A stretch of DNA of 64,000 nt from Streptococcus iniae (GTDB taxonomy: Bacteria > Bacillota > Bacilli > Lactobacillales > Streptococcaceae), in NCBI RefSeq assembly GCF_030732225.1, contig NZ_CP132230.1, forward strand, positions 338,001-402,000. The letters are read 5' to 3'. Made by a program: the position numbers and the translations under genes. Shown in pieces: positions 11,831 to 46,441 of the stretch. The stretch's first letter is position 1. Each line of letters opens with the position of its first letter. A model generated the notes under the pieces. The model was not told the DNA's origin and did not search any database. It saw only the letters and a list, made by a program, of their open reading frames with translations.

Positions 11831-12570
11831 ATGAAAGCAAAAAAACAATAACTTCATTAATCTTTTTAACTACGTTATTATTCAGTCTTATTATTTCTCC
11901 GATTACATATGCAATGACGCAAAACGATAGTACAACAAAGGTATCTATTTCGAGAGAAGAAGCAGACCTGTTAAAAACATATCACCAAAATATAAATTTT
12001 ATAACTGACCAAGAATCACTGAATTTAAAAAAAATTGTTTTAAACTCAATTAACGAAAAGATTCCAGTACATTCATCTTTAAAAGAGTATGATTTTGAAA
12101 ATATTAGAACATTTAAGTATGATACAATGACACTAGTTAGTGTATCAAAGTATAACAGTTTACTTAGCACATTGACATTCACTATTGATTCAGGGGAAAT
12201 AACCAGTTATATTGAAAATGATGTAATTAACGACAACGGATACTTTAGAAGTAACGTATACGAAAACGGTGCGTTAGTATCAAGTAATTTAACAACAGCT
12301 AAATATCTTTCAAATGATGAAGTTCTTGAAAGCATAAAATCACTTGAAAATGCTACACTAGACAATGTTTTAGTAGGTAAAACAAGAGGTTTAGACGCAA
12401 AATGTTTTGCAATTTTTACAGGAGCAGGAGCAGCAATTATCGGAGCTATTCTTAAACTTTGCGGAACACCATGTGCTTTAACTCCTCCTGTCTGTGTCGC
12501 ATGTTTAGGAGGTATTGTAGCAGTTGGAGCTGGCTCAATAGCTGCAGGTGTTGCTTTTTGTTGGAAATGA
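11831..12570 (+). pseudogene. Secreted cysteine-rich bacteriocin precursor, frameshifted in signal peptide
   Basis: The best start is ATG 11831, 7 bases after AAGGAG, but the frame stops at codon 7 in an A-run (11839-11845, seven A). One extra A would join MKAKKTITSLIFLTT... (a clear signal peptide ending SPITYA) to the long frame open from 11914, giving 246 residues. The mature-like C-terminal end is strongly hydrophobic and glycine-rich with six cysteines (CX3C, CX6C, CX2C spacing), resembling halocin C8-like bacteriocin domains after a long hydrophilic propeptide. The A-run may be a slippage switch, a fixed mutation or a read error. Neighbour: a 36-residue membrane peptide gene. Function is inferred from architecture. 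Confidence 0.65.
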
Positions 12571-36221: not shown

Positions 36222-36614
36222 ATGGCACAAGCACAATATGCAGGTACTGGCCGTCGTAAAAACGCTGTTGCACGCGTTCGTTTGGTTCCAGGTACTGGTA
36301 AAATCACAGTTAACAAAAAAGATGTTGAAGAATACATCCCACACGCAGACTTACGTCTTGTTATCAACCAACCATTCGCAGTGACTTCAACTGAAGGTTC
36401 ATACGACGTTTTCGTTAACGTAAATGGTGGTGGATACGGTGGTCAATCAGGTGCGATCCGTCATGGTATCGCTCGCGCATTGCTACAAGTAGACCCAGAC
36501 TTCCGCGATTCATTGAAACGCGCTGGACTTCTTACACGTGACGCACGTATGGTTGAACGTAAAAAACCAGGTCTTAAAAAAGCCCGCAAGGCATCACAAT
36601 TCTCAAAACGTTAA
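36222..36614 (+). CDS. rpsI: 30S ribosomal protein S9
   Basis: 130 residues, ending with the conserved basic tail [17 protein letters not shown] that reaches the P-site tRNA. Other segments: [39 protein letters not shown]. The 3' end of this gene is a known landing site for integrative elements in streptococci. A diverged second copy of its last codons lies at 39396-39448. Confidence 0.97.
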
Positions 36615-36672: not shown

Positions 36673-37013
36673 ATTTTAAAGAAGTTCAGCATCACAGACT
36701 ATGGGCTGTAGATTTAATATTATTTGTAGGATAAAATGAAGGAAATACTAAGTTGAGTTGATAATAAAAAATAATGCTTTAATGGTGGTGATATTATGGG
36801 GGTGTTTGTAATATATAGCTATTAAATAATTGTTTTCTAATGGTAAAGTGTTATAATTAAAAAAATGGAAAATGAGATAGTTATGGTAACTGCACCACTT
36901 GTAAACAGAAAACCTTATACAAGTCAAATTGTTACAGTAATTAATAATGTCGAATAAATTTAGGTAAATAAATTATTTGGATAAATTGATGATATATTTG
37001 AGGAGATGGTAAA
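36665..37013 (+). repeat. Leader repeat of the lipase island, copy 1
   Basis: After the T-run the sequence TATTTTAAAGAAGTTCAGCA and most of the next 340 bases recur with scattered changes at 39500-39822, up to the start codon of each putative immunity gene. It includes TTATAATT promoter-like DNA and a short lipase relic. I see no other gene here. Confidence 0.85.
36883..36957 (+). pseudogene. Relic of a lipase gene in the module leader
   Basis: A 24-codon frame reading MVTAPLVNRKPYTSQIV... matches residues 61-77 of the lipase encoded at 37452 (MAVAPLVNGKPDTSQIV). The homology is too good for chance, so this is a fragment of a former lipase copy. Confidence 0.65.
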
Positions 37014-37448
37014 ATGAATAAAAGGTTACTAGGTATTGTTGCAATACTAGTTATTTTAATAGGAGGTGGAGTTGCGATGAAAAGTATATTTACTGGAGAA
37101 GAGATTCCAAAAGATAATTCATCAATAAGTTCAAAAGACAGAGATAATGAATTGAAGATTGAAACAGAACTCGCAAAAAAAATAATTAGTGAGTACGATG
37201 GTGTAAAAAAAATTGAGTTTTCTAATTGGGGGCATTCAGAAAAGACTGGAATTTACTCGAAAATGGCTACAATAAATAATGAAGATCAGATTTCATACTC
37301 ATTTGATGATAATAAGTCTATAAATTCTCTAAGAGGATATGTAACAGATGATGATATGTATGTTATAAAAAGAAAAGAATTATTGAATATAGGGAAAATT
37401 GATTTAAGCAAGTGTTCAATTACATACTCATTTAGAATGAAAGAGTGA
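37014..37448 (+). CDS. Membrane-anchored putative immunity protein, module 1
   Basis: 144 residues: one N-terminal helix (LLGIVAILVILIGGGVAM), then a polar extracellular domain of about 115 residues starting KSIFTGEEIPKD. No lipobox. It stands just before a lipase gene (3-base gap) in the same place as the TilA lipoprotein that protects against the T7SS lipase TslA in Staphylococcus aureus. The N-terminal 30 residues are close to the IS256-split gene at 39823 (KSIFTG shared), but the rest of the domain differs, as expected for toxin-specific immunity. Role inferred from context. Confidence 0.6.
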   Translation: MNKRLLGIVAILVILIGGGVAMKSIFTGEEIPKDNSSISSKDRDNELKIETELAKKIISEYDGVKKIEFSNWGHSEKTGIYSKMATINNEDQISYSFDDNKSINSLRGYVTDDDMYVIKRKELLNIGKIDLSKCSITYSFRMKE

Positions 37449-37451
37449 AAT

Positions 37452-38708
37452 ATGGTATCAGACGGATTAAATAATTTTTTTGCAGGACAGCTTTATAATA
37501 TTGATCCATCTGTAGCAAAATCAAATAATGAAAAAGTTGTCACCGAAAAATCAAAACTTACTGATAGTACTACGGGTAAAGAGTATAAAGTCATTGAAAC
37601 AAGAAATAATCCTTTAAACGGCATGCAAGCTATGGCAGTTGCACCACTTGTAAATGGAAAACCAGATACAAGTCAAATTGTTATAGCATACGCTGGTACT
37701 AATTCTTCTGATAGAAATGATATAAATACCGATTACCAGTCGGTAGTTGTTGGTAATAAAAAACTACAAAAGCCTCGTAATGAGATTGTTGATGGACAAG
37801 TTGAATCTGCTTTAGCATTTGCAAAAGATATCAAAGATACTTATAAAGAAGCTTCGATTTCTACAACAGGTCATTCCTTGGGAGAATATCTTGCAATGAT
37901 TATTGCTGCTGAGAACCACTGGTCGAATACAGGTTTCAATGGACCTGATGGATGGAATAACCTATCACCTCAAGCAAAGGAATGGGTGCTTGCGAACTCT
38001 GAAAAGTTTAAAAATTTTAGAAATAGTGAAGATATTATTGGCCTAGTTAACGGTAATCAAATGAGAGCTGGAATTTCAATTGATATGGGGATTGATGGTG
38101 ATTATAGTAAGATAACTGAGATATTTGGCGAATACTTAAAACACCATGAGATTACACAGTGGAAGTTTGATGAAGATGGTAACATCATCATTCCTAAAAA
38201 TGGGAAAAATGCAGAAGCGGTTTTAGTTTACGAACAAAAAATAAAACAGCTTAAATATGAAGAAACAAACAAGGAAATCAGTCAGTTACGAACAAAGTTC
38301 AGAAAATCTGGTGGAGGGCTTTCATCTCAGGAGAAAATTTATTTGAATGATGTACTAGCTCTAAATGTTGTTTCAACAGTATCGTCTGAGTTTCATTCAC
38401 TATTAGCTAGTTTAGGGCAAATTTATAAAGATGGAATAACAGAAGCTGAGGAACTTTGGGATAGTACACTTGAACAGTCAAAATCAATAGGAACGCACTT
38501 AAATGAAACTGAGATTAAAGAAGCTTTGTCTCATGTTGGATTCACTGAACAAAGAGTAGTTACTAGTCAGAAAGAGAAGTTCGCCGAGAAATTATCTAAA
38601 GTAAATGGGATGACTCACAAATTTGATGACCTTCAATCATCAATTAAAGCAAGTATCAATAAGTTAGTAGCTGCAGATGACGCTTTGGCTAAGGAAATTT
38701 CTGCTTAG
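37452..38708 (+). CDS. TslA-like T7SS lipase toxin, module 1
   Basis: 418 residues, no signal peptide. The N-terminal half is a class 3-type lipase: IVIAYAGTNSSD (oxyanion region) and nucleophile elbow TGHSLGEYLAM with Ser142; an acidic residue in RNSEDIIGLVNG and a His in KHHEITQWKFD complete a plausible triad. From about residue 250 the protein is helical and charged (KIKQLKYEETNKEISQLRTKF, then a long helical tail), like the LXG-like targeting half of TslA, which is C-terminal and so reversed relative to LXG toxins. The two small genes after it match TlaA/TlaB in position. Probably a phospholipase acting on rival membranes; secretion by T7SS is inferred. Confidence 0.72.
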   Translation: MVSDGLNNFFAGQLYNIDPSVAKSNNEKVVTEKSKLTDSTTGKEYKVIETRNNPLNGMQAMAVAPLVNGKPDTSQIVIAYAGTNSSDRNDINTDYQSVVVGNKKLQKPRNEIVDGQVESALAFAKDIKDTYKEASISTTGHSLGEYLAMIIAAENHWSNTGFNGPDGWNNLSPQAKEWVLANSEKFKNFRNSEDIIGLVNGNQMRAGISIDMGIDGDYSKITEIFGEYLKHHEITQWKFDEDGNIIIPKNGKNAEAVLVYEQKIKQLKYEETNKEISQLRTKFRKSGGGLSSQEKIYLNDVLALNVVSTVSSEFHSLLASLGQIYKDGITEAEELWDSTLEQSKSIGTHLNETEIKEALSHVGFTEQRVVTSQKEKFAEKLSKVNGMTHKFDDLQSSIKASINKLVAADDALAKEISA

Positions 38709-38720
38709 GAGGTATCGCTT

Positions 38721-39044
38721 TTGACAAAAGTGGATGATATTTTTTTACATTACCAAAAAGAACGATTGAAATTAGAAGAGCAAGAAGATGAATTGCATTT
38801 GAATTCCAAAAAAGGGGAGCAACTTATCGATGATTATTTTGCAAAACTTAACTATGTTTTTAAAAGTGATACGGAGGCTGATTTTGAAGGTAGAGAGTAT
38901 GCCCTAAGAAAAGGACAAATGCTCTTTGCCAAATTTGAAGAGTTGGTTGAAAATGAACGATTGAGATTGGCTAAGTCTTACGATGCATTAGAAAAAGCCT
39001 ATCAAAAAGAAATGCTTTCGATTTCTGAAGATGAGAGGAAATAA
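38721..39044 (+). CDS. TlaA-like small helical partner, module 1
   Basis: 107 residues, TTG start 8 bases after GGAGG. Almost wholly helical and charged (LKLEEQEDELHLNSKKGEQLIDDYF ... FEELVENERLRLAKSYDALEKAYQKE), consistent with a helical hairpin of the DUF3958 type. In S. aureus the corresponding TlaA binds the C-terminal half of TslA to form the export-competent complex. No catalytic residues. Confidence 0.55.
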   Translation: MTKVDDIFLHYQKERLKLEEQEDELHLNSKKGEQLIDDYFAKLNYVFKSDTEADFEGREYALRKGQMLFAKFEELVENERLRLAKSYDALEKAYQKEMLSISEDERK

Positions 39045-39048
39045 TTGA

Positions 39049-39309
39049 ATGGGATTATTGGATAAACAATTAGAGGAACTTCGTAAGGAACTTGAAAAAG
39101 CAATGATTGAAGGTATTGGGGTAAAAGCAATAGCTACCAGCTATTATAATAAAGCAAAAATTAAAGTAAAAGAATCCGAAATTGTTGAAGAAGCAAAAAA
39201 TTTTATGACAAATAATGCAACTTCTATGGAAGAAGCAGTAAAAGGAAAGTTTGGGACTAAAATAAAAGAATCTCTTGAATCTCAGAAGAATCTTTTAAAT
39301 GATTTGTAA
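39049..39309 (+). CDS. TlaB-like small helical partner, module 1
   Basis: 86 residues starting 4 bases after the previous gene. Helical, opening MGLLDKQLEELRKELEKAM, with a glycine near the middle of the first helix and an alanine/lysine-rich second half, WXG100-like in size and shape. It resembles the second chaperone-like protein (TlaB/SACOL2603 type) of TslA modules. Confidence 0.5.
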   Translation: MGLLDKQLEELRKELEKAMIEGIGVKAIATSYYNKAKIKVKESEIVEEAKNFMTNNATSMEEAVKGKFGTKIKESLESQKNLLNDL

Positions 39310-39395
39310 GGCCATAAATGCTAGAAATAATAATTACTTTTCCTCCACTTTAAAAGCTCCGAAAACTAAATTCTTGATAACACCTCCACTATTAG

Positions 39396-39448
39396 AGGAA
39401 ACCAGGTCTAAGAAAGCCCGTAAAGCAAGTCAGTTCTCAAAACGTTAA
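39396..39448 (+). repeat. Diverged second copy of the rpsI 3' end
   Basis: This reads [12 protein letters not shown] followed by TAA in the same frame as the rpsI tail, but with synonymous changes (AGT CAG for TCA CAA, CGT AAA for CGC AAG) and one base lost upstream. The changes show that it came with foreign DNA and is not a fresh local duplication. It fits an attachment-site copy left by integration at rpsI. It is followed by its own hairpin terminator (39473-39502). Confidence 0.8.
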
Positions 39449-39472
39449 TTGGAAAGAATTGGAGATTATATG

Positions 39473-39502
39473 GAACATTCCTCTTTGGGATGTTCTTTTT
39501 TT
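39473..39502 (+). terminator. Terminator after the rpsI tail copy
   Basis: GAACATTCC / GGGATGTTC stem with a T-run. It differs from the terminator of the true rpsI. Confidence 0.75.
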
Positions 39503-39822
39503 ATTTTAAAGAAGTTCAGCATCGCAGACTATGGGTCGTAGCTTCAACATTGTTTGTAAGAAAAAAATGAAGGAACATTAAATTGAGTTAATAATTAAAA
39601 AAATAATGCTTTAATGATGGTGATGTTTGTAATCAATAACTATTAACTATTTTTTTCTAATGGTAACGTGTTATAATTAAAAAAAAATAGAAAATGATAT
39701 AGTTATGATAGCTACACCACTTGTAAATGGAAAACCTGATGCAAGTTAAAATGTACAGTAATTAATAAATTTAGGTAATGAATTATTTGGATAAATTGAT
39801 GATATATTTAGGAGATAGTAAA
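39500..39822 (+). repeat. Leader repeat of the lipase island, copy 2
   Basis: Diverged duplicate of 36665-37013, beginning TATTTTAAAGAAGTTCAGCA and running to the start codon of the split putative immunity gene. Confidence 0.85.
39705..39749 (+). pseudogene. Second relic of a lipase gene
   Basis: A 14-codon frame MIATPLVNGKPDAS then stop matches lipase residues 61-74 (MAVAPLVNGKPDTS). It lies in the leader of the third module, in the equivalent position to 36883-36957. Confidence 0.6.
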
Positions 39823-39970
39823 ATGAATAAAAAGATGATAACTTTTATAGCAATTATTATCGTGATTTTAGGAAGTGGGTTTGCAATGAAGAGTATATTT
39901 ACAGGTAAGGAAATTAAAAAAAATAATGAGATTAATATTATTCATAAAGAAGAACAAGATAGACTTAAGA

Positions 39971-41284
39971 GGTAGTGTAAAATATCTTGTGTAAACACAA
40001 AAAAGGAATAAATCCTGTATAGTAGAGTTACGACACTTCACTAGAAAGAGATTTATTCCCATGACTCAGTTTACCACAGAATTACTTAACTTCCTAGCGC
40101 AAAAACAAGATATTGATGAATTCTTTCGATCCTCTTTAGAAATAGCTATGAATGATCTCTTGCAGGTTGAACTATCAGCTTTCCTTGGATATGAGCCATA
40201 TAAAAAAGAAGGTTACAATACAGGTAATAGCCGTAATGGGACCTACTCTCGACAGTTTGAAACGAAGTATGGCTTAGTCAATTTAATCATTCCAAGAGAT
40301 CGAAACGGCGAGTTTTCACCAGTTTTATTACCATCTTATGCTAGACGAGATGACCACTTGGAAGAGATGGTGATTAAACTCTATCAAACTGGCGTTACGA
40401 CACGCGAAATCAGTGACATTATTGAGCGCATGTATGGTCACCACTACAGTCCAGCAACGGTGTCAAATATCACAAAAGTGACTCAAGAAAGTGTCACTGC
40501 CTTTCATGAGCGTTCCTTTCAAACTAACTACTCAGTCTTGTATCTAGACGGAACTTACTTACCCTTGCGACGAGGTACGGTCAGTAAAGAATGTATTCAC
40601 ATTGCACTTGGTATCACGCCTGAAGGGTATAAATCAGTTCTTGGCTATGAGATTGCCCCTAATGAAAATAATGTCTCTTGGTCAGATCTTCTTAAGAGGC
40701 TACAAAATCAAGGACTTAAGCAAGTTTCTCTAGTTGTTACAGACGGGCTTAACGGTGTGGATCAAATCATCCAACAAGCCTATCCAATGGCTAAACAGCA
40801 ACGGTGTCTGGTTCACATTGGTCGCAATATCTCCAGTAAGGTCAAACGAGTAGATAGGGCACCTATTCTAAATCAGTTCAAGCAGATTTATCGTGCCACA
40901 AATTTACAGGAGGCTATTAAATTATTGGAACAATTTGTTTCTGAGTGGAAACCTCGTTACAAAAAGGTTATGACATCACTTGAAACAACTGAAAATCTCC
41001 TAACTTTCTATCAATTTCCACATCACATTTGGTCTAGTATTTACTCTACAAACTTGATTGAATCACTCAATAAAGAAATCAAGCGACAAAGCAAGAAGAG
41101 GGTGGTTTTTCCAAATGAAGAAGCCTTAGAACGATGCCTTGTAAGTATTTTCGAAGACTATAACATTAAGTTCGGAGCTCGTATTCATAAAGGATTCGGA
41201 GTATGTTTTGACACACTTGATAGCTTATTTGACTAATATTCAAAAACTCTACTCTTGTGTTTACACAAAATTATTGACAGTATC
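39971..41284 (+). mobile_element. IS256-family insertion sequence
   Basis: 1314 bp, flanked by perfect 8-bp direct repeats ACTTAAGA (39963-39970 and 41285-41292), the IS256-family signature duplication. Imperfect 30-bp terminal inverted repeats share TTGTGTAAACACAA. Encodes one complete transposase. Confidence 0.95.
40061..41236 (+). CDS. IS256-family mutator-type transposase
   Basis: 391 residues, full length. DDE residues in VLYLDGTYLPLRRG (first Asp), SLVVTDGLNGVDQIIQQAYP (second Asp) and SIYSTNLIESLNKEIKRQSKKRVVFPNEEAL (Glu in the mutator signature). N-terminal segment contains the family-typical LSAFLGYEPY and GYNTGNSRNGTYSRQF. No disruption is visible, so the element may still be mobile. 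Confidence 0.95.
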   Translation: MTQFTTELLNFLAQKQDIDEFFRSSLEIAMNDLLQVELSAFLGYEPYKKEGYNTGNSRNGTYSRQFETKYGLVNLIIPRDRNGEFSPVLLPSYARRDDHLEEMVIKLYQTGVTTREISDIIERMYGHHYSPATVSNITKVTQESVTAFHERSFQTNYSVLYLDGTYLPLRRGTVSKECIHIALGITPEGYKSVLGYEIAPNENNVSWSDLLKRLQNQGLKQVSLVVTDGLNGVDQIIQQAYPMAKQQRCLVHIGRNISSKVKRVDRAPILNQFKQIYRATNLQEAIKLLEQFVSEWKPRYKKVMTSLETTENLLTFYQFPHHIWSSIYSTNLIESLNKEIKRQSKKRVVFPNEEALERCLVSIFEDYNIKFGARIHKGFGVCFDTLDSLFD

Positions 41285-41599
41285 ACTTAAGAATTATATA
41301 TTAAAAAATATTATACTTACTAAGAATGAAAAAATTAAAAAAATAACATTTATTCAGTTTGAAAAAGACGATATAGCTGGCAACTGGCTTATAACTGTAA
41401 AAATTAATAATAAATATCTCATGTCATTAAGTGAGGATAAATTAGGGGGACAGATACGAACTTCTGGGTATTCGTCAAATGAGTTAAAAGAGAAGAAGCT
41501 ATCTAGCTCTGAAATAAACAACGAAAATATAGAAGTTGACTATTTTGAAGGAGAGTATATTCGGTTTTAGAAATTTTCCATGGCCTATCATTTGTACTA

Positions 41600-43234
41600 T
41601 TGGTATTTGTAACACAGGAACTTTTTGACTCTTTAAATCAGTCAGTAAATCAAAAAGATGTCAAAACTAGTTTACTTGCTATATTGATTTTATTTACTTG
41701 CGGTTTGCTTAGTCAATTATTGAACGGCATAACCAATTTTTTAGCCAATTATATAAAAAATAGTGTTATTGGTAAAATAGCTGGTTTAACTCAGAAAAAA
41801 GCAAGTAGAATAAAACCTATTGAGTATGAGCGTTCTCAATACTTAGATGATATTGAAAAAGCAGTTGAAGGGATTAAAAGTTCCTGTGATCTAGCTCAAA
41901 TAATATTATCGGTGTTCTTTTTCTACATTCCTTATTTTACATTTATGAGTATATATTTATTCCAACAATCTAACATACTTGTTTTTAGTGTTTTATTAGT
42001 TTTTATTCCAGTAGTCCTTGGACAATTCGTTAAATCCAAATACTCTTATGAGTTAAATGAAAATATATCAAATGATAAAAGAGCATCAAGAGAATTCGAG
42101 AAAAGCTTGGTCGATTTAAAAAATGTTAAAGAAGTTCGTTTGTTTGGTGCGAGTCAATTTTTTTTCGCTAAACTAAAAGAGACAATTTTACGGATTAATG
42201 CAGGGATTCTAGACAACAGTAAAAAAAATCTTCGGTTATCAATTTATTTGAATCTAATTAGTATACTTGGCTATGTCATATTGCTATCAATGTTATTTCT
42301 TTTAACGATTAGAGGGGAAATTTCAATTGGAGCATTTGGAGCCATTTTTGCCTCAATTGAAACAATGTTTATTATAATGGATGAAATTATCAATGACAGT
42401 TTAGGGGAAATTAGTGAGAAATCAGGTTTAATTGTACACTTGGTTAATTTTATGGCCATACCTGAGAAAAGCACACAAGAAGGAAGCCCATTAAATAAAA
42501 ACATAGCATTAAAAAATGTTTCATTTCATTATCCTGATACAGATAGAAATGTAATTGAAAATATCAATTTACTTATCACTGAGGGGGAAAAACTTGCGGT
42601 TGTAGGTATAAATGGCTCGGGAAAAACAACTTTAGTAAAATTATTAACAGCCATTTTTGAACCCACTGAAGGAACAATTTTGATTCACGGTATGGATACA
42701 AGCAAGATAAATCCCAATAGAATCTATAACCGGTATGCAATTGTTTGTCAAAAATTTAACCGTTACAAACTGTCTTTAGAAGATAATGTTCGAATTGCAA
42801 ATTTTGAAGATAAGAAGAAAGACTATAAAGCAGCACTCCGTAAAGCATCATTTAAGGTCAATGATAAGAATATTGATGGAGATACCATTTTATCTAGAGA
42901 ATTTGATGGAATTGATTTGTCTGGAGGACAGTGGCAAAGGATAGCCTTATCTCGAGCATATTTTAGAGACCGGGAAATAATTATTTTAGATGAACCAACC
43001 TCTGCTATTGATCCAATTGAGGAAACGCAGTTGTATCATCAATTTTTCTCCCTTTCTGAAAATAAAACTTCTATTATCATCACTCACAGATTAGGCTCTG
43101 CCAAACTAGCAGATAGGGTTATCCTGATGGATAAAGGAAGAATCATTGGTGACGGAACTCATGAAGCGTTACTGATGACTAATCATCACTATAAGAAAAT
43201 GTGGGACGCACAAGCCCGTTGGTATGTCAGGTAG
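41600..43234 (+). CDS. ABC exporter with fused membrane and ATPase domains, 5' end doubtful
   Basis: 544 residues from TTG 41600: membrane domain with about five or six helices, then an ATPase with Walker A GINGSGKTT, signature LSGGQWQRIALSRA, Walker B IIILDEPTSAID and the His switch IIITHRLGS. The frame is open upstream only to 41549, there is no ATG or SD, and it overlaps the end of the split putative immunity gene. Full-length half-exporters have an extra N-terminal segment, so the gene looks 5'-truncated where the third module breaks off. Substrate unknown; peptide or drug export possible. Confidence 0.7.
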   Translation: MVFVTQELFDSLNQSVNQKDVKTSLLAILILFTCGLLSQLLNGITNFLANYIKNSVIGKIAGLTQKKASRIKPIEYERSQYLDDIEKAVEGIKSSCDLAQIILSVFFFYIPYFTFMSIYLFQQSNILVFSVLLVFIPVVLGQFVKSKYSYELNENISNDKRASREFEKSLVDLKNVKEVRLFGASQFFFAKLKETILRINAGILDNSKKNLRLSIYLNLISILGYVILLSMLFLLTIRGEISIGAFGAIFASIETMFIIMDEIINDSLGEISEKSGLIVHLVNFMAIPEKSTQEGSPLNKNIALKNVSFHYPDTDRNVIENINLLITEGEKLAVVGINGSGKTTLVKLLTAIFEPTEGTILIHGMDTSKINPNRIYNRYAIVCQKFNRYKLSLEDNVRIANFEDKKKDYKAALRKASFKVNDKNIDGDTILSREFDGIDLSGGQWQRIALSRAYFRDREIIILDEPTSAIDPIEETQLYHQFFSLSENKTSIIITHRLGSAKLADRVILMDKGRIIGDGTHEALLMTNHHYKKMWDAQARWYVR

Positions 43235-43367
43235 TCTTGTCGGAAAGTTTATTAACAAGATTTGCTTTTGTTTTGGCTCTGTTTTGGTATAATGTTTTTT
43301 AATAGATAAGCCGTGGCATTTTAGTGCTTCTGGTTTGTGTTCATTTCAGCTAAAGGAGTTTGTGGCG

Positions 43368-43922
43368 ATGTTTGTTTATGATGAGAAGACGAATACTATT
43401 GAAACAGAAGCATTGTTGTTAAGGCAGTTTGTTTTGGAGGACAGTCAGTCTGTTGCTATAATTTGCAATAGTGATCAGGTTCAAAAAGGGACCCTTTCCT
43501 TGCCGAAACCTTATACTCCAGATTCAGCAATAGCTTGGATTGGTAGTCATAAGTCACGTTGTGAGCAGGACAGTGCCTATAACTATGCCATTACGGATAA
43601 GAAGACTGGCCAACTGTACGGTTCTGTAAGTTTAGTGAGATATCCTAAGACAGACTTGGCTGAACTGGGTTACTGGATAGATCCAGAAGTTTGGAACAAA
43701 GGTATCGCTACCGAGGCAGCTAAAGCAATGATTAATTATGGATTTCAGATAAAAAACTTGCATAAAATTACGGCAAAACATTTTCTTTATAATATGGCAT
43801 CAGGTAAGGTTATGGTGAAAGCTGGCATGTCAAAAGAAGGGGATCAAAAGCAACAAGTCTTAAAAGATGGTAACTATGAAGATGTAGTCCATTATGGAGT
43901 GCTTAACTCCGAAGTCTTATAG
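43368..43922 (+). CDS. GNAT-family N-acetyltransferase (RimJ/RimL type)
   Basis: 184 residues from ATG 43368, preceded by AAAGGAG; the frame upstream has no better start. Pattern of the RimL subgroup: TEALLLRQFVLEDSQSVAIICNS at the start, LAELGYWIDPEVWNKGIATEAAKAMINYGF (acetyl-CoA loop) and NLHKITAKHFLYNMASGKVMVKAGMSKEG. It probably acetylates a protein N-terminus or small amine; substrate unknown. It lies between the third and second lipase modules without clear link. Confidence 0.85.
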   Translation: MFVYDEKTNTIETEALLLRQFVLEDSQSVAIICNSDQVQKGTLSLPKPYTPDSAIAWIGSHKSRCEQDSAYNYAITDKKTGQLYGSVSLVRYPKTDLAELGYWIDPEVWNKGIATEAAKAMINYGFQIKNLHKITAKHFLYNMASGKVMVKAGMSKEGDQKQQVLKDGNYEDVVHYGVLNSEVL

Positions 43923-44100
43923 AGAGAAATTAAAGTGTTCCTTGAGGAATGCTTTTCCTATTGCATTGTGTTGTGAGCGAGAATTGGTATTCCTTTAAGG
44001 GTCAGTAAAATTAAAAAGAGTCTAAAATTAGAAACGAAAAGCTGATTTGAAAACTATTAGGGCTGTTTTGCATTAATTTCTCTTATGATTTTTAAATATT

Positions 44101-44109
44101 TGTTATAAT
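44101..44109 (+). promoter_or_regulatory. Promoter of lipase module 2
   Basis: TGTTATAAT (extended -10), 50 bases before the module 2 putative immunity gene. Confidence 0.55.
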
Positions 44110-44158
44110 GTAATTGACATAATGTTTTTAAATTAAAAGAGGATAAAAGGGTTAGGTT

Positions 44159-44551
44159 GTGAGAAAAAGGAAAACTTATATCATTTTAGCGCTAATCGTT
44201 GTAATAGGGGGGATTGTCATGAAACAGTTATTTGCCAGTCATGCAGACTTGGATAAAAAAATAGAGCAAGATAGAATAGCGAAGTACATTAACGACTATG
44301 TTTATTTAGCTGATGGCGAAGTCATCACAGACATCGCTTTTACGGATTTTGAGAAAAATGAGATGACAGGCTCTTGGATGATTACAACAAAAATTAACGG
44401 CAAGTATGATATTAGTTTTTCAGAAACTACTATGGGAGGAAAATTGCGTGCCTTAGGTTATTTTCCAAATGAAATCGATGTAAGAACTGAAAAAGAAGTG
44501 GGGCGCAAGGATTTTGAGGCCTTAACAATTACCTATGTTGAGGTAAACTAA
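44159..44551 (+). CDS. Membrane-anchored putative immunity protein, module 2
   Basis: 130 residues, GTG start after an AAAAGGG-type SD. One N-terminal helix (TYIILALIVVIGGIVM) behind the basic MRKRK, then a polar domain of about 105 residues with FTDFEKNEMTGSWMITTKINGKYDISFSE. Homologous to the IS-split gene at 39823 and more distantly to 37014. The lipase gene starts one base after its stop. Probably protects the outer face of the cytoplasmic membrane against the cognate lipase; inferred from context. Confidence 0.6.
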   Translation: MRKRKTYIILALIVVIGGIVMKQLFASHADLDKKIEQDRIAKYINDYVYLADGEVITDIAFTDFEKNEMTGSWMITTKINGKYDISFSETTMGGKLRALGYFPNEIDVRTEKEVGRKDFEALTITYVEVN

Positions 44552-45760
44552 ATGCCTACAGATCAAGATTATAGATATTTAGCAGAAGATAGTTACAATA
44601 TTGACTCAAAATTACTTAAACAAACCCTACAAGAAGGTCAAATTGTCGGAAATGGCCGGTATATTATTGTCGATAAACCTGTTGATAACACTCGAAATGG
44701 TATGCAGGCCATGGCTGTTGCTCCTATTTTAGAAGGCACAAAAGATCGACCAGACCTTAGCCACATTATTATTGCCTTTGCTGGGACAAATTCTAGTGAT
44801 TTTCTAGACCTTCAAACAGATCTTCAAATGATAGGTGCAGGTGCAACAGAAACTTTAACAGATGTTAAAACAAGAACATTGCAAGATTCTCAAGGAAAAA
44901 CTGCATTAGAATATGCTAGGCAAATTGCTGCAAAATACCCGAAAGCTGCCATTTCAACAACGGGACATTCACTAGGACAATCTCAGGCCATGTATGTGGC
45001 CTTAAAAAACGGCTGGCTAAATGTCGGTTACAATGGACCAGATATCCATCACATGCTGACGCAAGATGGTATTAAATACATGATGGATCATCCAGAACAA
45101 TTTAGAAATTATCGCAATAAGTATGATCTGATTGGAAATATCACTGGAAATAAAACACAAACAGCTATTTATTACAATGGAATAGAAGGTTTGTATGGGC
45201 CATTAAAGGTGCACAGTTTAAACAATTGGAAGTTTGACCAGGATGGAAATGTCATTGACAGTAATGGTAAGCGGCTAACTCCAAAATTGACAATTGCCTT
45301 AGCACAGACAACAGTAGAAACCTTTCGTATAACGCAATTAAAGAAACGGTTAGCACAAGATGGTTTATCCGAAAATGAGACCATATTTTTAGATGCTGAA
45401 GAAGCTTTTTCAATCTCTAGGGGACTTGTTTCAACTGCAGAAACAGCTTTGGCAGAAATGACCACTTCGGTTAACGCAAGCATGCAAAAAGCAGAAGAGC
45501 TTTTTCGAACCACCAAGTCAATGCCAAAGGGAGTAACAGATTTAACGGAGGCTGAGTTATCAGAAGCCTATGCAGCAGGAGGAGTGACTTACGACAGTAT
45601 TGTAGCAAAAACAAGTGAGCATTTTGAGGCAAAAATAGCACAAGCACAAGCTATTGTGACGGCATATAATACCTTAAAAAATCAGATTGATACAGGTATT
45701 GATAGGATGCTTGCTCAAGATAGTGTTTTAGCTGGAGACTTTAAAAAATGGAAAGCTTAA
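44552..45760 (+). CDS. TslA-like T7SS lipase toxin, module 2
   Basis: 402 residues. Same plan as the module 1 lipase: GMQAMAVAP, IIIAFAGTNSSDF and nucleophile elbow TTGHSLGQSQAMYV (Ser140), then RNKYDLIGNITGNK and the HSLNNWKFDQDGNVID segment, followed by a helical C-terminal half from about 250 (LKKRLAQDGLSENETIFLDAEEAF; MTTSVNASMQKAEELF). No signal peptide. The two lipases are clearly homologous but well diverged along their length, so these are distinct toxins and not a recent duplication. Its end overlaps the next gene by 13 bases. Confidence 0.72.
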   Translation: MPTDQDYRYLAEDSYNIDSKLLKQTLQEGQIVGNGRYIIVDKPVDNTRNGMQAMAVAPILEGTKDRPDLSHIIIAFAGTNSSDFLDLQTDLQMIGAGATETLTDVKTRTLQDSQGKTALEYARQIAAKYPKAAISTTGHSLGQSQAMYVALKNGWLNVGYNGPDIHHMLTQDGIKYMMDHPEQFRNYRNKYDLIGNITGNKTQTAIYYNGIEGLYGPLKVHSLNNWKFDQDGNVIDSNGKRLTPKLTIALAQTTVETFRITQLKKRLAQDGLSENETIFLDAEEAFSISRGLVSTAETALAEMTTSVNASMQKAEELFRTTKSMPKGVTDLTEAELSEAYAAGGVTYDSIVAKTSEHFEAKIAQAQAIVTAYNTLKNQIDTGIDRMLAQDSVLAGDFKKWKA

Positions 45761-46143
45761 ATCAGATATCGGAAAAACTTTTAAACAAGCGTGTAGAATT
45801 GGAAACCTTAGAAGACAGTTATCACCGATCAAACAATAATCTGGCAGAACAAGTTTATGATTTGGAGCAAAAACGTTCTGATTTGGAAAATCTTCTTCAA
45901 GAAACCTATGAAACAACCAGCTATGACTTGAGGCAAGATGATTCTGTCAATGAAGAATCCTTTATGGCAATGAATCAGATTTTTACCTTTTTTCAAACGG
46001 AGTTGGATGAGGAATTTACTAAAGAATACAGGATTTTATTGGATCAAGAAGAAGAGCTGAGACAGGAATACCTGAAAAAACGGCAAATCCTTCAAGACTC
46101 AGTAGAGCAATTGCAACAAAAGAATACAGCATATAAACATTAA
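45748..46143 (+). CDS. TlaA-like small helical partner, module 2
   Basis: 131 residues, longer than its module 1 counterpart. Charged coiled-coil-like helices (LNKRVELETLEDSYHRSNNNLAEQVYDLEQKRSDLENLL; EEELRQEYLKKRQILQDSVEQLQQK). Start ATG lies inside the lipase gene end, so expression is coupled. DUF3958-like by general character. Confidence 0.5.
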   Translation: MESLNQISEKLLNKRVELETLEDSYHRSNNNLAEQVYDLEQKRSDLENLLQETYETTSYDLRQDDSVNEESFMAMNQIFTFFQTELDEEFTKEYRILLDQEEELRQEYLKKRQILQDSVEQLQQKNTAYKH

Positions 46144-46159
46144 AAGAAGGAGAGCGACA

Positions 46160-46441
46160 ATGAGTGTTGTTGGAGAATTTTTTCGAGGGAAAACGGAGTT
46201 GAATACTGTTAAAAAAGAACTTGATAAAGCACTAGTTACAGGTGTCCATGCCCCTCGCCTTAAAAAAGATATTGGAATACTGGTAAACTCAGGTGATGGT
46301 GATATTACAGCAATAGCAGGAAGTGCCAGAAGTAGTATTACAGCCCTAGCACTCCAACTGGACACTGCTCTAAAAGGACAATTCAAAAGAAAAGTAGATG
46401 CAGCAATTGAGACAACTATTAGCCACTATGACCAATTTTAA
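46160..46441 (+). CDS. TlaB-like small helical partner, module 2
   Basis: 93 residues, SD AAGGAGAG. Opens MSVVGEFFRGKTELNTVKKELDKAL, with a central SGDGDITAIAGSARSSITALALQL and a final amphipathic helix; alanine-rich, helical hairpin-like. Comparable in size and position to 39049-39309. Confidence 0.5.
   Translation: MSVVGEFFRGKTELNTVKKELDKALVTGVHAPRLKKDIGILVNSGDGDITAIAGSARSSITALALQLDTALKGQFKRKVDAAIETTISHYDQF

What the first reader, a model, noticed from the sequence alone, without database searches (positions are those of the whole stretch)
37014..46441. Two reverse-arranged T7SS lipase modules (TslA-like) in a streptococcus
37014-39309 and 44159-46441 share the order putative membrane immunity gene, lipase with GHSLG elbow in the N-terminal half and helical C-terminal half, and two small helical proteins. 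This matches staphylococcal TilA-TslA-TlaA-TlaB, the T7SS toxin type with the targeting domain at the C-terminus. The guards here are single-helix membrane proteins, not lipoproteins.
Basis: partly seen in the sequence, partly recalled or inferred. Interest (0 to 1): 0.88.

Follow-up and report, generated by a model that had tools for sequence, protein, structure and literature searches.

The report
Mirror-image cassettes feeding reverse lipase toxins
A streptococcus carries two compact gene sets for a phospholipase weapon of the known TslA type, and related sets elsewhere sit behind rows of spare "immunity gene plus toxin front end" cassettes that look built for swapping the toxin's variable front end.

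Summary
Each module (37014-39309, 44159-46441) encodes a single-helix membrane guard, a lipase with a Ser-Asp-His triad and a helical C-terminal half, then two small helical proteins (Tla1/Tla2-like). The lipases are homologues, over core and tail, of lipases encoded next to DUF576 (TilA-family) genes (HHalign 99.8%, E 1.9e-29). The same genome has a T7SSb; in 197 streptococcal genomes lipases and EssC co-occur (49 of 57 against 17 of 140). The window guards are not DUF576.

New here, as far as I could search: in relatives the guard and the 5' end of the lipase gene repeat upstream as [guard + lipase stub]n (21 of 47 modules; 42 of 44 stubs directly follow a guard). In most stubs lipase homology stops soon after a conserved block (NGMQAMA...), often near-identical in DNA to the intact gene while the payload before it diverges. 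Guard ectodomain co-varies with the lipase N-terminal segment, not the core. Window module 1 differs from its S. didelphis relative in just that way and keeps two decayed stub tails.

Best reading: TslA-type T7SS toxins diversified by 5' cassette exchange, the mirror image of 3' cassettes in other polymorphic toxins.

The parts
36579..36614 (+). 3' end of host rpsI ([12 protein letters not shown], stop), left copy of the repeat that flanks module 1
   Evidence: rpsI 3' end is a documented ICE integration site (PMC4701971, passages)
36879..36937 (+). decayed lipase stub tail (matches lipase-1 37628-37686, the conserved block), upstream of guard 1
   Evidence: local score 73, 0 of 300 shuffles reach it
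37014..37448 (+). guard 1: putative immunity protein, one N-terminal transmembrane helix, no lipobox
   Evidence: (family HMM 1-129)
37452..38708 (+). lipase 1 (TslA-like): N-terminal lipase, Ser142/Asp194/His232; C-terminal helical targeting domain with GGL (288-290)
38721..39044 (+). Tla1-like small helical partner of module 1 (TTG start)
39049..39309 (+). Tla2-like small helical partner of module 1
39413..39448 (+). duplicated rpsI 3' end, right flank of module 1
39701..39754 (+). decayed lipase stub tail upstream of guard 3
   Evidence: local score 63, 0 of 300 shuffles
39823..39969 (+). guard 3, N-terminal part, broken by an IS256-family element
40061..41236 (+). IS256-family transposase inside guard 3 (inverted repeats 39964-40000 / 41255-41291)
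   Evidence: NF033543, 3.5e-112
41286..41567 (+). guard 3, C-terminal part
44159..44551 (+). guard 2: putative immunity protein, one N-terminal transmembrane helix, no lipobox (GTG start)
44552..45760 (+). lipase 2 (TslA-like): Ser140/Asp192/His221; helical C-terminal targeting domain
45748..46143 (+). Tla1-like small helical partner of module 2
46160..46441 (+). Tla2-like small helical partner of module 2

Best explanation
Each module is a reverse-architecture T7SSb toxin system of the TslA kind. The lipase is made with its helical C-terminal half bound to the two small helical proteins, which together form the signal for EssC; it leaves through the T7SS encoded about 76 kb downstream of module 2 and degrades phospholipids of competing Gram-positive cells. 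The guard, held on the outer face of the membrane by one helix, blocks the kin's lipase. Diversity is generated at the 5' end: the exchange unit is guard ectodomain plus about the first 55 codons of the lipase gene, bounded by the guard's 5' end (in many but not all loci) and by the conserved lipase block NGMQAMA...AGTN. Spare units stand upstream as [guard + lipase stub], so one recombination at the block (a deletion, or a conversion with both ends) would give the lipase a new front end together with its matching guard; unused guards also serve as orphan immunity. Shown here: anatomy, homology to DUF576-linked lipases, T7SS in the genome and co-occurrence, cassette arrays, block-wise DNA identity, guard/N-segment covariation, mosaic modules. 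Inferred: secretion, phospholipase activity, immunity, complex formation, and live cassette switching.
For: Homology to DUF576-linked lipases. Triad invariant in 24 of 24 aligned lipases. Weak PDB profile hits that fit: feruloyl esterase 4.2e-4 and Yarrowia lipase 3o0d 0.026 on the N half, S. aureus EsxA 0.021 on the C half. T7SS in own genome. Co-occurrence 49 of 57 vs 17 of 140, Fisher 2.4e-23. Arrays: of 47 modules with at least 2.5 kb upstream (of 58), 21 have an upstream stub; 42 of 44 stubs follow a guard directly; none on the opposite strand; 32 of 47 have 2 or more guard ORFs (fragments counted); also in the lipoprotein-guard group. DNA identity along units in 10 chosen loci: 18 of 24 units that reach the block have 87-100% in a 60-base bin at or beside it, with the payload before it much lower. 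Third-position identity block vs N-segment in the same pairs 0.79 vs 0.55, 24 of 30, p 1.1e-4; block within vs between loci 0.78 vs 0.39, 29 of 30. Partial Mantel guard~N-segment given core 0.37 (p 0.001), guard~core given N-segment 0.05 (p 0.13); within-locus r 0.46, p 0.007. Window module 1 vs S. didelphis L003: DNA identity 38-61% across guard ectodomain and N-segment (37111-37590), 71-85% from the block on (37591-38250). Module 1 payload groups with a streptococcal set (100/98) that the core rejects (AU 1.1e-5). Module 2: C-terminus and partners group with L128/L054, the lipase core does not.
Against: Three Tsl genomes (G077, G098, G120) show no EssC beyond FtsK-level hits and five more only partial EssC; G098 has an intact-looking module. 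The tests of co-occurrence and covariation do not correct for phylogeny. Similar or better chance-like PDB hits exist for the C half (OmpH 0.018). Tla2 similarity to the DUF576-linked loci is not significant (prob 3.8%), and neither Tla2 has an F/YxxxD/E motif (the TslA paper reports none clear either). The payload tree does not reject module 1 with the Listeria/Enterococcus set (AU 0.16), and that set is not a clade with module 1 in the core tree either, though not rejected (AU 0.29). The C-terminal domain also co-varies with the guard given the N-segment (0.19, p 0.001). In the within-locus test L114 gives 0.0 and L025 0.11. 6 of 24 units lack a raised block and the guard-side block is not raised in L114 and parts of L023. 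In the window itself the stubs are decayed. Lipase 2 lacks a strict GxL at the expected place (DGL, sequence). 26 of 47 modules showed no stub. No structure, no functional data.
Confidence: 0.72

Rival explanations
1. Ordinary TslA modules with decaying duplicates: stubs are dead remnants of tandem duplication that accompany orphan immunity genes and play no part in switching.
For: In the window the stub tails are degenerate; orphan immunity strings are known for T7SS (PMC9484751, passages; PMC10730906, sections); several stubs have low block identity; 26 of 47 modules have no stub.
Against: 42 of 44 stubs follow a guard directly, and in 37 of 44 lipase homology ends by profile position 111, the block starting near 57; 18 of 24 units keep 87-100% DNA identity at the block with a much more divergent payload; block third positions exceed the N-segment in 24 of 30 pairs; arrays occur with different guard families.
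Confidence: 0.25
2. The lipases are secreted metabolic or host-directed lipases, not interbacterial toxins; upstream genes are chaperones or anchors rather than immunity proteins.
For: No functional test; some genomes with modules lack EssC; T7SS substrates can act on hosts (recalled).
Against: Guard multiplicity and guard/N-segment covariation fit toxin-immunity; homology over core and tail to DUF576-linked, TslA-type lipases, the type for which antibacterial activity and TilA inhibition are published (PMC10730906, abstract and sections 6, 7, 9, 12).
Confidence: 0.08
3. Stub peptides are functional: translated short decoys or folding partners that occupy or prime the guard, rather than recombination substrates.
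For: Many stub ORFs start at, overlap or lie within a few bases of the guard's stop and could be translationally coupled.
Against: Stub homology ends vary widely (profile position 60 to 163), and third-position conservation of the block is not expected from a peptide role alone.
Confidence: 0.07

Closest known systems
TilA-TslA-TlaA1-TlaA2 of Staphylococcus aureus (Garrett et al. 2023, PMC10730906; abstract, sections 6, 7, 9, 12 and passages seen)
   Same: Gene order guard-lipase-Tla1-Tla2; Ser-Asp-His lipase at the N-terminus; helical LXG-like C-terminus; several guard copies upstream; polymorphic N-terminal region; cassette already reported from Listeria and Enterococcus. Lipase homology tested against DUF576-linked lipases.
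   Different: Window guards are 130-144 aa, helix-anchored, with no DUF576 similarity; Tla2 similarity not significant. The parts read mention extra tilA genes but no tslA stubs.
Reverse lipases at other T7SS types (PMC11217815, passages)
   Same: Lipases with C-terminal helical domain at T7SSe and T7SSg loci.
   Different: Neobacillus and Paenibacillus; not compared here.
Polymorphic toxins with downstream toxin-immunity cassettes (Zhang et al. 2012, PMC3482391)
   Same: Spare toxin fragments paired with immunity genes beside the full gene; one recombination would bring both.
   Different: [quoted passage not shown] here it is immunity-toxin at the 5' end.
T7SS immunity arrays esaG, tipC, tsaI (Garrett et al. 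2022, PMC9484751)
   Same: Tandem immunity genes; conserved blocks recombine in esaG and tipC; a tspA fragment with 3' homology lies in a tsaI cluster.
   Different: Immunity genes, or one 3' toxin fragment (passages); not repeated [guard + 5' toxin stub] units.
TelC/TipC of Streptococcus intermedius
   Same: Membrane-bound outward-facing immunity protein of a streptococcal T7SS toxin, in variable copy number (PMC9484751 passages).
   Different: Lipid II phosphatase of the forward LXG type (PMC10730906 section 7 and abstract of PMC6193138).

Membership tests
TslA-type reverse T7SS lipase | Lipase domain at the N-terminus with Ser-Asp-His triad | tested here: met
   Invariant S140, D192, H221 (lipase 2 numbering) in 24 of 24 aligned; TslA triad S164, D224, H251 (passage)
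[quoted passage not shown]
   C-terminal HMM finds DUF576-linked lipases L144/L147 at 1.1e-24 and 3.7e-23; full profile comparison 99.8%. S. aureus TslA itself not compared
TslA-type reverse T7SS lipase | GxL motif in the C-terminal domain | tested here: inconclusive
   Lipase 1 has GGL at 288; lipase 2 has DGL at the aligned place
TslA-type reverse T7SS lipase | Two small helical partners encoded directly downstream | tested here: met
   Position and family HMMs; Tla1 homology to L147/L144 1.2e-7, 9.4e-7; Tla2 homology not significant
TslA-type reverse T7SS lipase | Immunity gene directly upstream | tested here: met
   Position only: guard directly upstream in both modules and in 55 of 72 distinct relatives by the guard HMM
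TilA (DUF576) immunity family | DUF576/PF04507 lipoprotein | tested here: not met
   No Pfam hit to window guards; profile vs DUF576-linked guards 0.3%; no lipobox
TslA-type reverse T7SS lipase | T7SSb in the same genome | tested here: met
   EssC 1843.5 bits, TIGR04197, further components by size and order
TslA-type reverse T7SS lipase | EssC-dependent secretion with the partners; phospholipase A activity; inhibition by the guard | not testable with these tools
   needs experiments
DUF1310 (PF07006) | Pfam match | tested here: not met
   Window guards no match; 4 of 24 aligned guards match at E <= 0.01, best 7.2e-30
ICE/IME-type cargo at rpsI | att-like duplication of the rpsI 3' end on both sides | tested here: inconclusive
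   Duplication present; I noticed no integrase in the ORF list but did not search for one

The most novel reading that the evidence does not exclude
Reverse T7SS toxins carry a true mirror-image polymorphism system: upstream [immunity gene + 5' toxin stub] cassettes, bounded by conserved DNA blocks, are exchanged into the expressed toxin, so that the guard and the roughly 55-residue N-terminal segment (probably the guard-contact surface) switch together while core and targeting domain stay. Blocks [guard + N-segment], [lipase core] and [targeting domain + Tla1 + Tla2] recombine independently across Bacillota.
Probability: 0.6. Interest if true: 0.78.

Novelty: new variant of a known kind. Interest (0 to 1): 0.62.

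Why it matters
TslA was presented as the first reverse T7SS substrate, known from Staphylococcus, Enterococcus and Listeria. The window adds streptococcal members with a different guard family, and the relatives suggest how such toxins diversify: not by the 3' toxin-immunity cassettes that Zhang et al. (2012) tie to toxin-immunity gene order, but by the same trick run backwards at the 5' end. That is directly testable by long-read sequencing of ordinary cultures, and it points to a specific ~55-residue segment as a candidate immunity-recognition site. It also warns annotators that short 'lipase' ORFs behind small membrane or DUF1310 genes may be switch cassettes.

Tried and rejected
Tried without result: Pfam, NCBIfam and PADLOC gave no informative family for the window guards or small proteins (PADLOC run on guards and lipases only). 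The NCBIfam SA1320 hit to lipase 2 (7.5e-17, 61 bits against a cut-off of 230) I take to reflect a lipase domain shared with longer (about 780-800 aa) lipases seen in relatives; I did not pursue those. I first thought that ORFs matching only the C-terminal part might be non-lipase toxins on the same tail; of the 72 distinct full-length proteins with that tail that I collected, 67 contain GxSxG and 5 do not (L082, L111, L133 and two in L131), so 'other toxins on the same tail' is not supported, and those 5 are unresolved. In L015 the lipase lies next to EsxA- and EsaA-like ORFs but no Tla ORF was found there.

Rejected: that guard membrane anchoring is special to this genome. That modules 1 and 2 are simple duplicates: their C-termini and small proteins fall in different clades or have different nearest relatives. 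Statistical cautions: Mantel and Fisher tests do not correct for phylogeny; AU clades were named after seeing trees; stub counts are per module, so loci with two modules count stubs twice; strains of one species recur; the units were cut by hand in 10 loci; the printed table was cut in the middle and was recounted. Rows left out: lipases with under 2.5 kb upstream (11 of 58) from the stub count; stubs without the motif or without a full gene in their locus from the identity tests (30 pairs used).
Full report
What is there. The window is positions 338001-402000 of a closed 2.18 Mb genome; the genus is Streptococcus, inferred because named streptococcal contigs (e.g. S. gordonii 668030, S. oralis 822929 bases) reappear by length under 'same genus' handles. 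The lipases share 35% identity and the stretches NGMQAMAVAP, AGTNSSD and STTGHSLG. Their profile finds feruloyl esterase (4.2e-4) and fungal lipases (3o0d 0.026) on its N half and S. aureus EsxA (0.021) on its C half in the PDB, all weak, with a chance-like OmpH hit (0.018) also on the C half.

Is it TslA-like? Yes, by comparison with DUF576-linked lipases. In a sample of 299 Bacilli genomes, 54 had a match. I looked at seven of the returned loci and aligned four lipases from them. In the two loci where I scanned the upstream gene it is DUF576, the TilA family (7e-64 and 1.1e-60). The window-family profile aligns with the four lipases over 341 columns, probability 99.8%, E 1.9e-29. Tla1 homologues are found in those two loci (1.2e-7, 9.4e-7); Tla2 similarity is not significant (prob 3.8%). 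The window guards are not DUF576 (0.3%) and match no Pfam family at its cut-off; 4 of 24 aligned guards of the family match DUF1310, best 7.2e-30. The longer lipoprotein guards of another streptococcal group do show a weak link to DUF576 (3.3e-4 to the L144 guard). Of 55 modules with a guard-family ORF directly upstream, 44 guards have a helix without lipobox, 10 a lipobox, 1 neither.

Is there a T7SS? The genome has a 1469-residue EssC, a TIGR04197 Lap and, at about 460.8-473 kb, ORFs that by size, order and recall are EsxA, EsaA, EssA, EsaB, EssB, a second Lap and an LXG-position toxin of 547 residues (no NCBIfam hit to the last). In 197 streptococcal genomes, 57 have a lipase-family match (E <= 1e-10), 66 have EssC over the cut-off and 49 both; 17 of the other 140 have EssC (Fisher 2.4e-23, uncorrected for phylogeny). 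Of the 8 exceptions, G035, G062, G108 and G184 have partial EssC, G111 a fragment, and G077, G098 and G120 only FtsK-level matches. In one Enterococcus the lipase lies directly before EsxA- and EsaA-like ORFs, though without recognisable Tla genes (L015).

The unexpected part. Scanning neighbourhoods with the lipase profile, I found short ORFs that match only the first part of the lipase, upstream of the full gene and preceded by a guard. The order is [guard + lipase stub]n - guard - lipase - tla1 - tla2; locus L114 has eight guards and six counted stubs, L118 eight guards and one stub. Of 58 distinct full lipases whose N-terminal part matches, 47 have at least 2.5 kb of upstream sequence; 21 of these have at least one upstream stub, 44 stubs in all (per module), 42 directly after a guard, none on the opposite strand; two further same-strand stubs lie downstream, by the map those of L023 and L131, which have two modules each. 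In 37 of 44 lipase homology ends by profile position 111; the block starts near 57. 32 of 47 modules have two or more guard ORFs, fragments counted. Stub-like ORFs also occur in the separate group with lipoprotein guards (e.g. L094, L095, L105, L107).

Why this looks like a switch. In 10 loci whose units I cut by hand, 24 units reach the block; 18 of them have 87-100% identity in a 60-base bin at or beside the NGMQAMA codons, while the guard ectodomain and lipase N-segment before it are much lower, mostly about 40-75%; the guard's 5' end is high again in most loci but not in L114 or parts of L023 (counts read off its table). In the same stub/gene pairs third codon positions agree at 0.79 in the block and 0.55 in the N-segment (24 of 30 pairs, p 1.1e-4); block third-position identity is 0.78 within loci against 0.39 between loci (29 of 30; 30 of 44 stubs had a usable full gene in the same locus). 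Across 41 modules the guard ectodomain co-varies with the lipase N-segment when the core is held (0.37, p 0.001) but not with the core when the N-segment is held (0.05, p 0.13); it does co-vary with the C-terminal domain (0.19, p 0.001), which I read as shared ancestry. Within nine loci with three or more cassettes the pooled correlation is 0.46, p 0.007, though L114 gives 0.0 and L025 0.11. Physical linkage alone could give the covariation; its loss at the block is what suggests exchange there.

The window as a case. The nearest relative of module 1, in S. didelphis (lipase 76% identical over residues 38-418; there in two ORFs), shows the pattern in one comparison: DNA identity is 60-75% over the guard's start, 38-61% across the guard ectodomain and lipase N-segment (37111-37590), and 71-85% in every bin from 37591 to 38250; the guards are 38% identical over about their first 100 residues and do not align usefully beyond. 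Module 1 has guard and N-segment closest to S. marimammalium, S. suis, S. cuniculi and unnamed same-genus cassettes, but core, C-terminus and partners closest to Listeria, Enterococcus and other Bacilli (S. didelphis apart). In a tree of guard plus N-segment it sits with the streptococcal set at 100/98; the core tree rejects that set (AU 1.1e-5). The payload tree does not reject placing it with the Listeria/Enterococcus set (AU 0.16) and the core tree neither shows nor rejects that set as a clade (AU 0.29). Module 2 has a lipase core of the S. oralis/gordonii kind, while its C-terminus and both partners go with L128 and the truncated third copy L054 (AU 1.5e-4 and 2e-93, clades named after the trees were seen). 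Two decayed stub tails lie upstream of guard 1 (36879-36937) and of the split guard 3 (39701-39754), each with a score that 0 of 300 shuffles reach; none upstream of guard 2. The rpsI 3' end is repeated after module 1; that site is a documented ICE target (PMC4701971, passages), so module 1 may have come as element cargo. A third copy at 186 kb lacks the lipase front, next to transposase-like ORFs, but keeps the tail and both partners.

How it most likely works, and what is new. The toxin part is known: TslA is a T7SS-secreted phospholipase A neutralised by TilA and helped out by TlaA1 and TlaA2 (PMC10730906, abstract and sections 6, 7, 9, 12). That paper names Enterococcus and Listeria as carriers and reports extra tilA copies, a polymorphic N-terminal region and recombination among til genes; the parts I read and the terms I searched in it mention no tslA stubs; its supplement was not available. 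Other papers searched by term (PMC11217815, PMC10765036, PMC10941976, PMC9484751, PMC10327511; passages) describe reverse lipases at other T7SS types, orphan immunity genes, truncated Rhs genes and one 3' tspA fragment, not repeated 5' stub cassettes. The searches, of which I saw listings, showed nothing titled or abstracted on it, within an open-licence library only. Zhang et al. 2012 tie toxin polymorphism to toxin-immunity order with 3' cassettes (PMC3482391 section 41); the arrays here are that idea mirrored. I therefore rate the finding a new variant of a known kind: confirmed as TslA-type, with a different guard family and a 5' cassette organisation that, if it switches, is the interesting part. 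Structure prediction could not be run (21 attempts, server busy).

Noticed in passing
window 36579-36614 and 39413-39448: The 3' end of rpsI is duplicated on both sides of module 1, and several hundred bases after each copy are also repeated; it looks like an attachment-site or accretion scar of an element that targets rpsI.
   Followed up: partly
window 39964-41291: IS256-family element inserted in the third guard gene; a transposase that looks the same by eye lies near the T7SS locus (L055 17751-18926).
   Followed up: partly
L054 1-2627 (genome position about 186 kb): Third Tsl-type locus: lipase front missing next to transposase-like ORFs (IS3-type by recall, not scanned), targeting domain and both partner genes open.
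   Followed up: partly
window 11914-12570: 218-aa ORF with a Cys-containing hydrophobic C-terminus that looks like a bacteriocin precursor (impression only); no NCBIfam or PADLOC hit.
   Followed up: no
window 41600-43234: ABC exporter (MsbA-like, far under the families' cut-offs) right after the split guard; its 5' end may be missing (impression).
   Followed up: no
L055 13313-15660: 547-aa protein in the LXG position with a Gly/Ala-rich C-terminal part, followed by a 233-aa membrane-like protein: a candidate T7SS toxin and immunity pair; no NCBIfam hit.
   Followed up: no
L030, L031, L032, L034: Longer lipases of about 780-790 aa share the N-terminal lipase domain and the guards but have a longer C-terminal part; L032 has a counted stub, L030, L031 and L034 none.
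   Followed up: no
L082, L111, L131, L133: Members with the targeting domain but without a GxSxG elbow (5 of 72 distinct); possibly inactive or differently active toxins.
   Followed up: no
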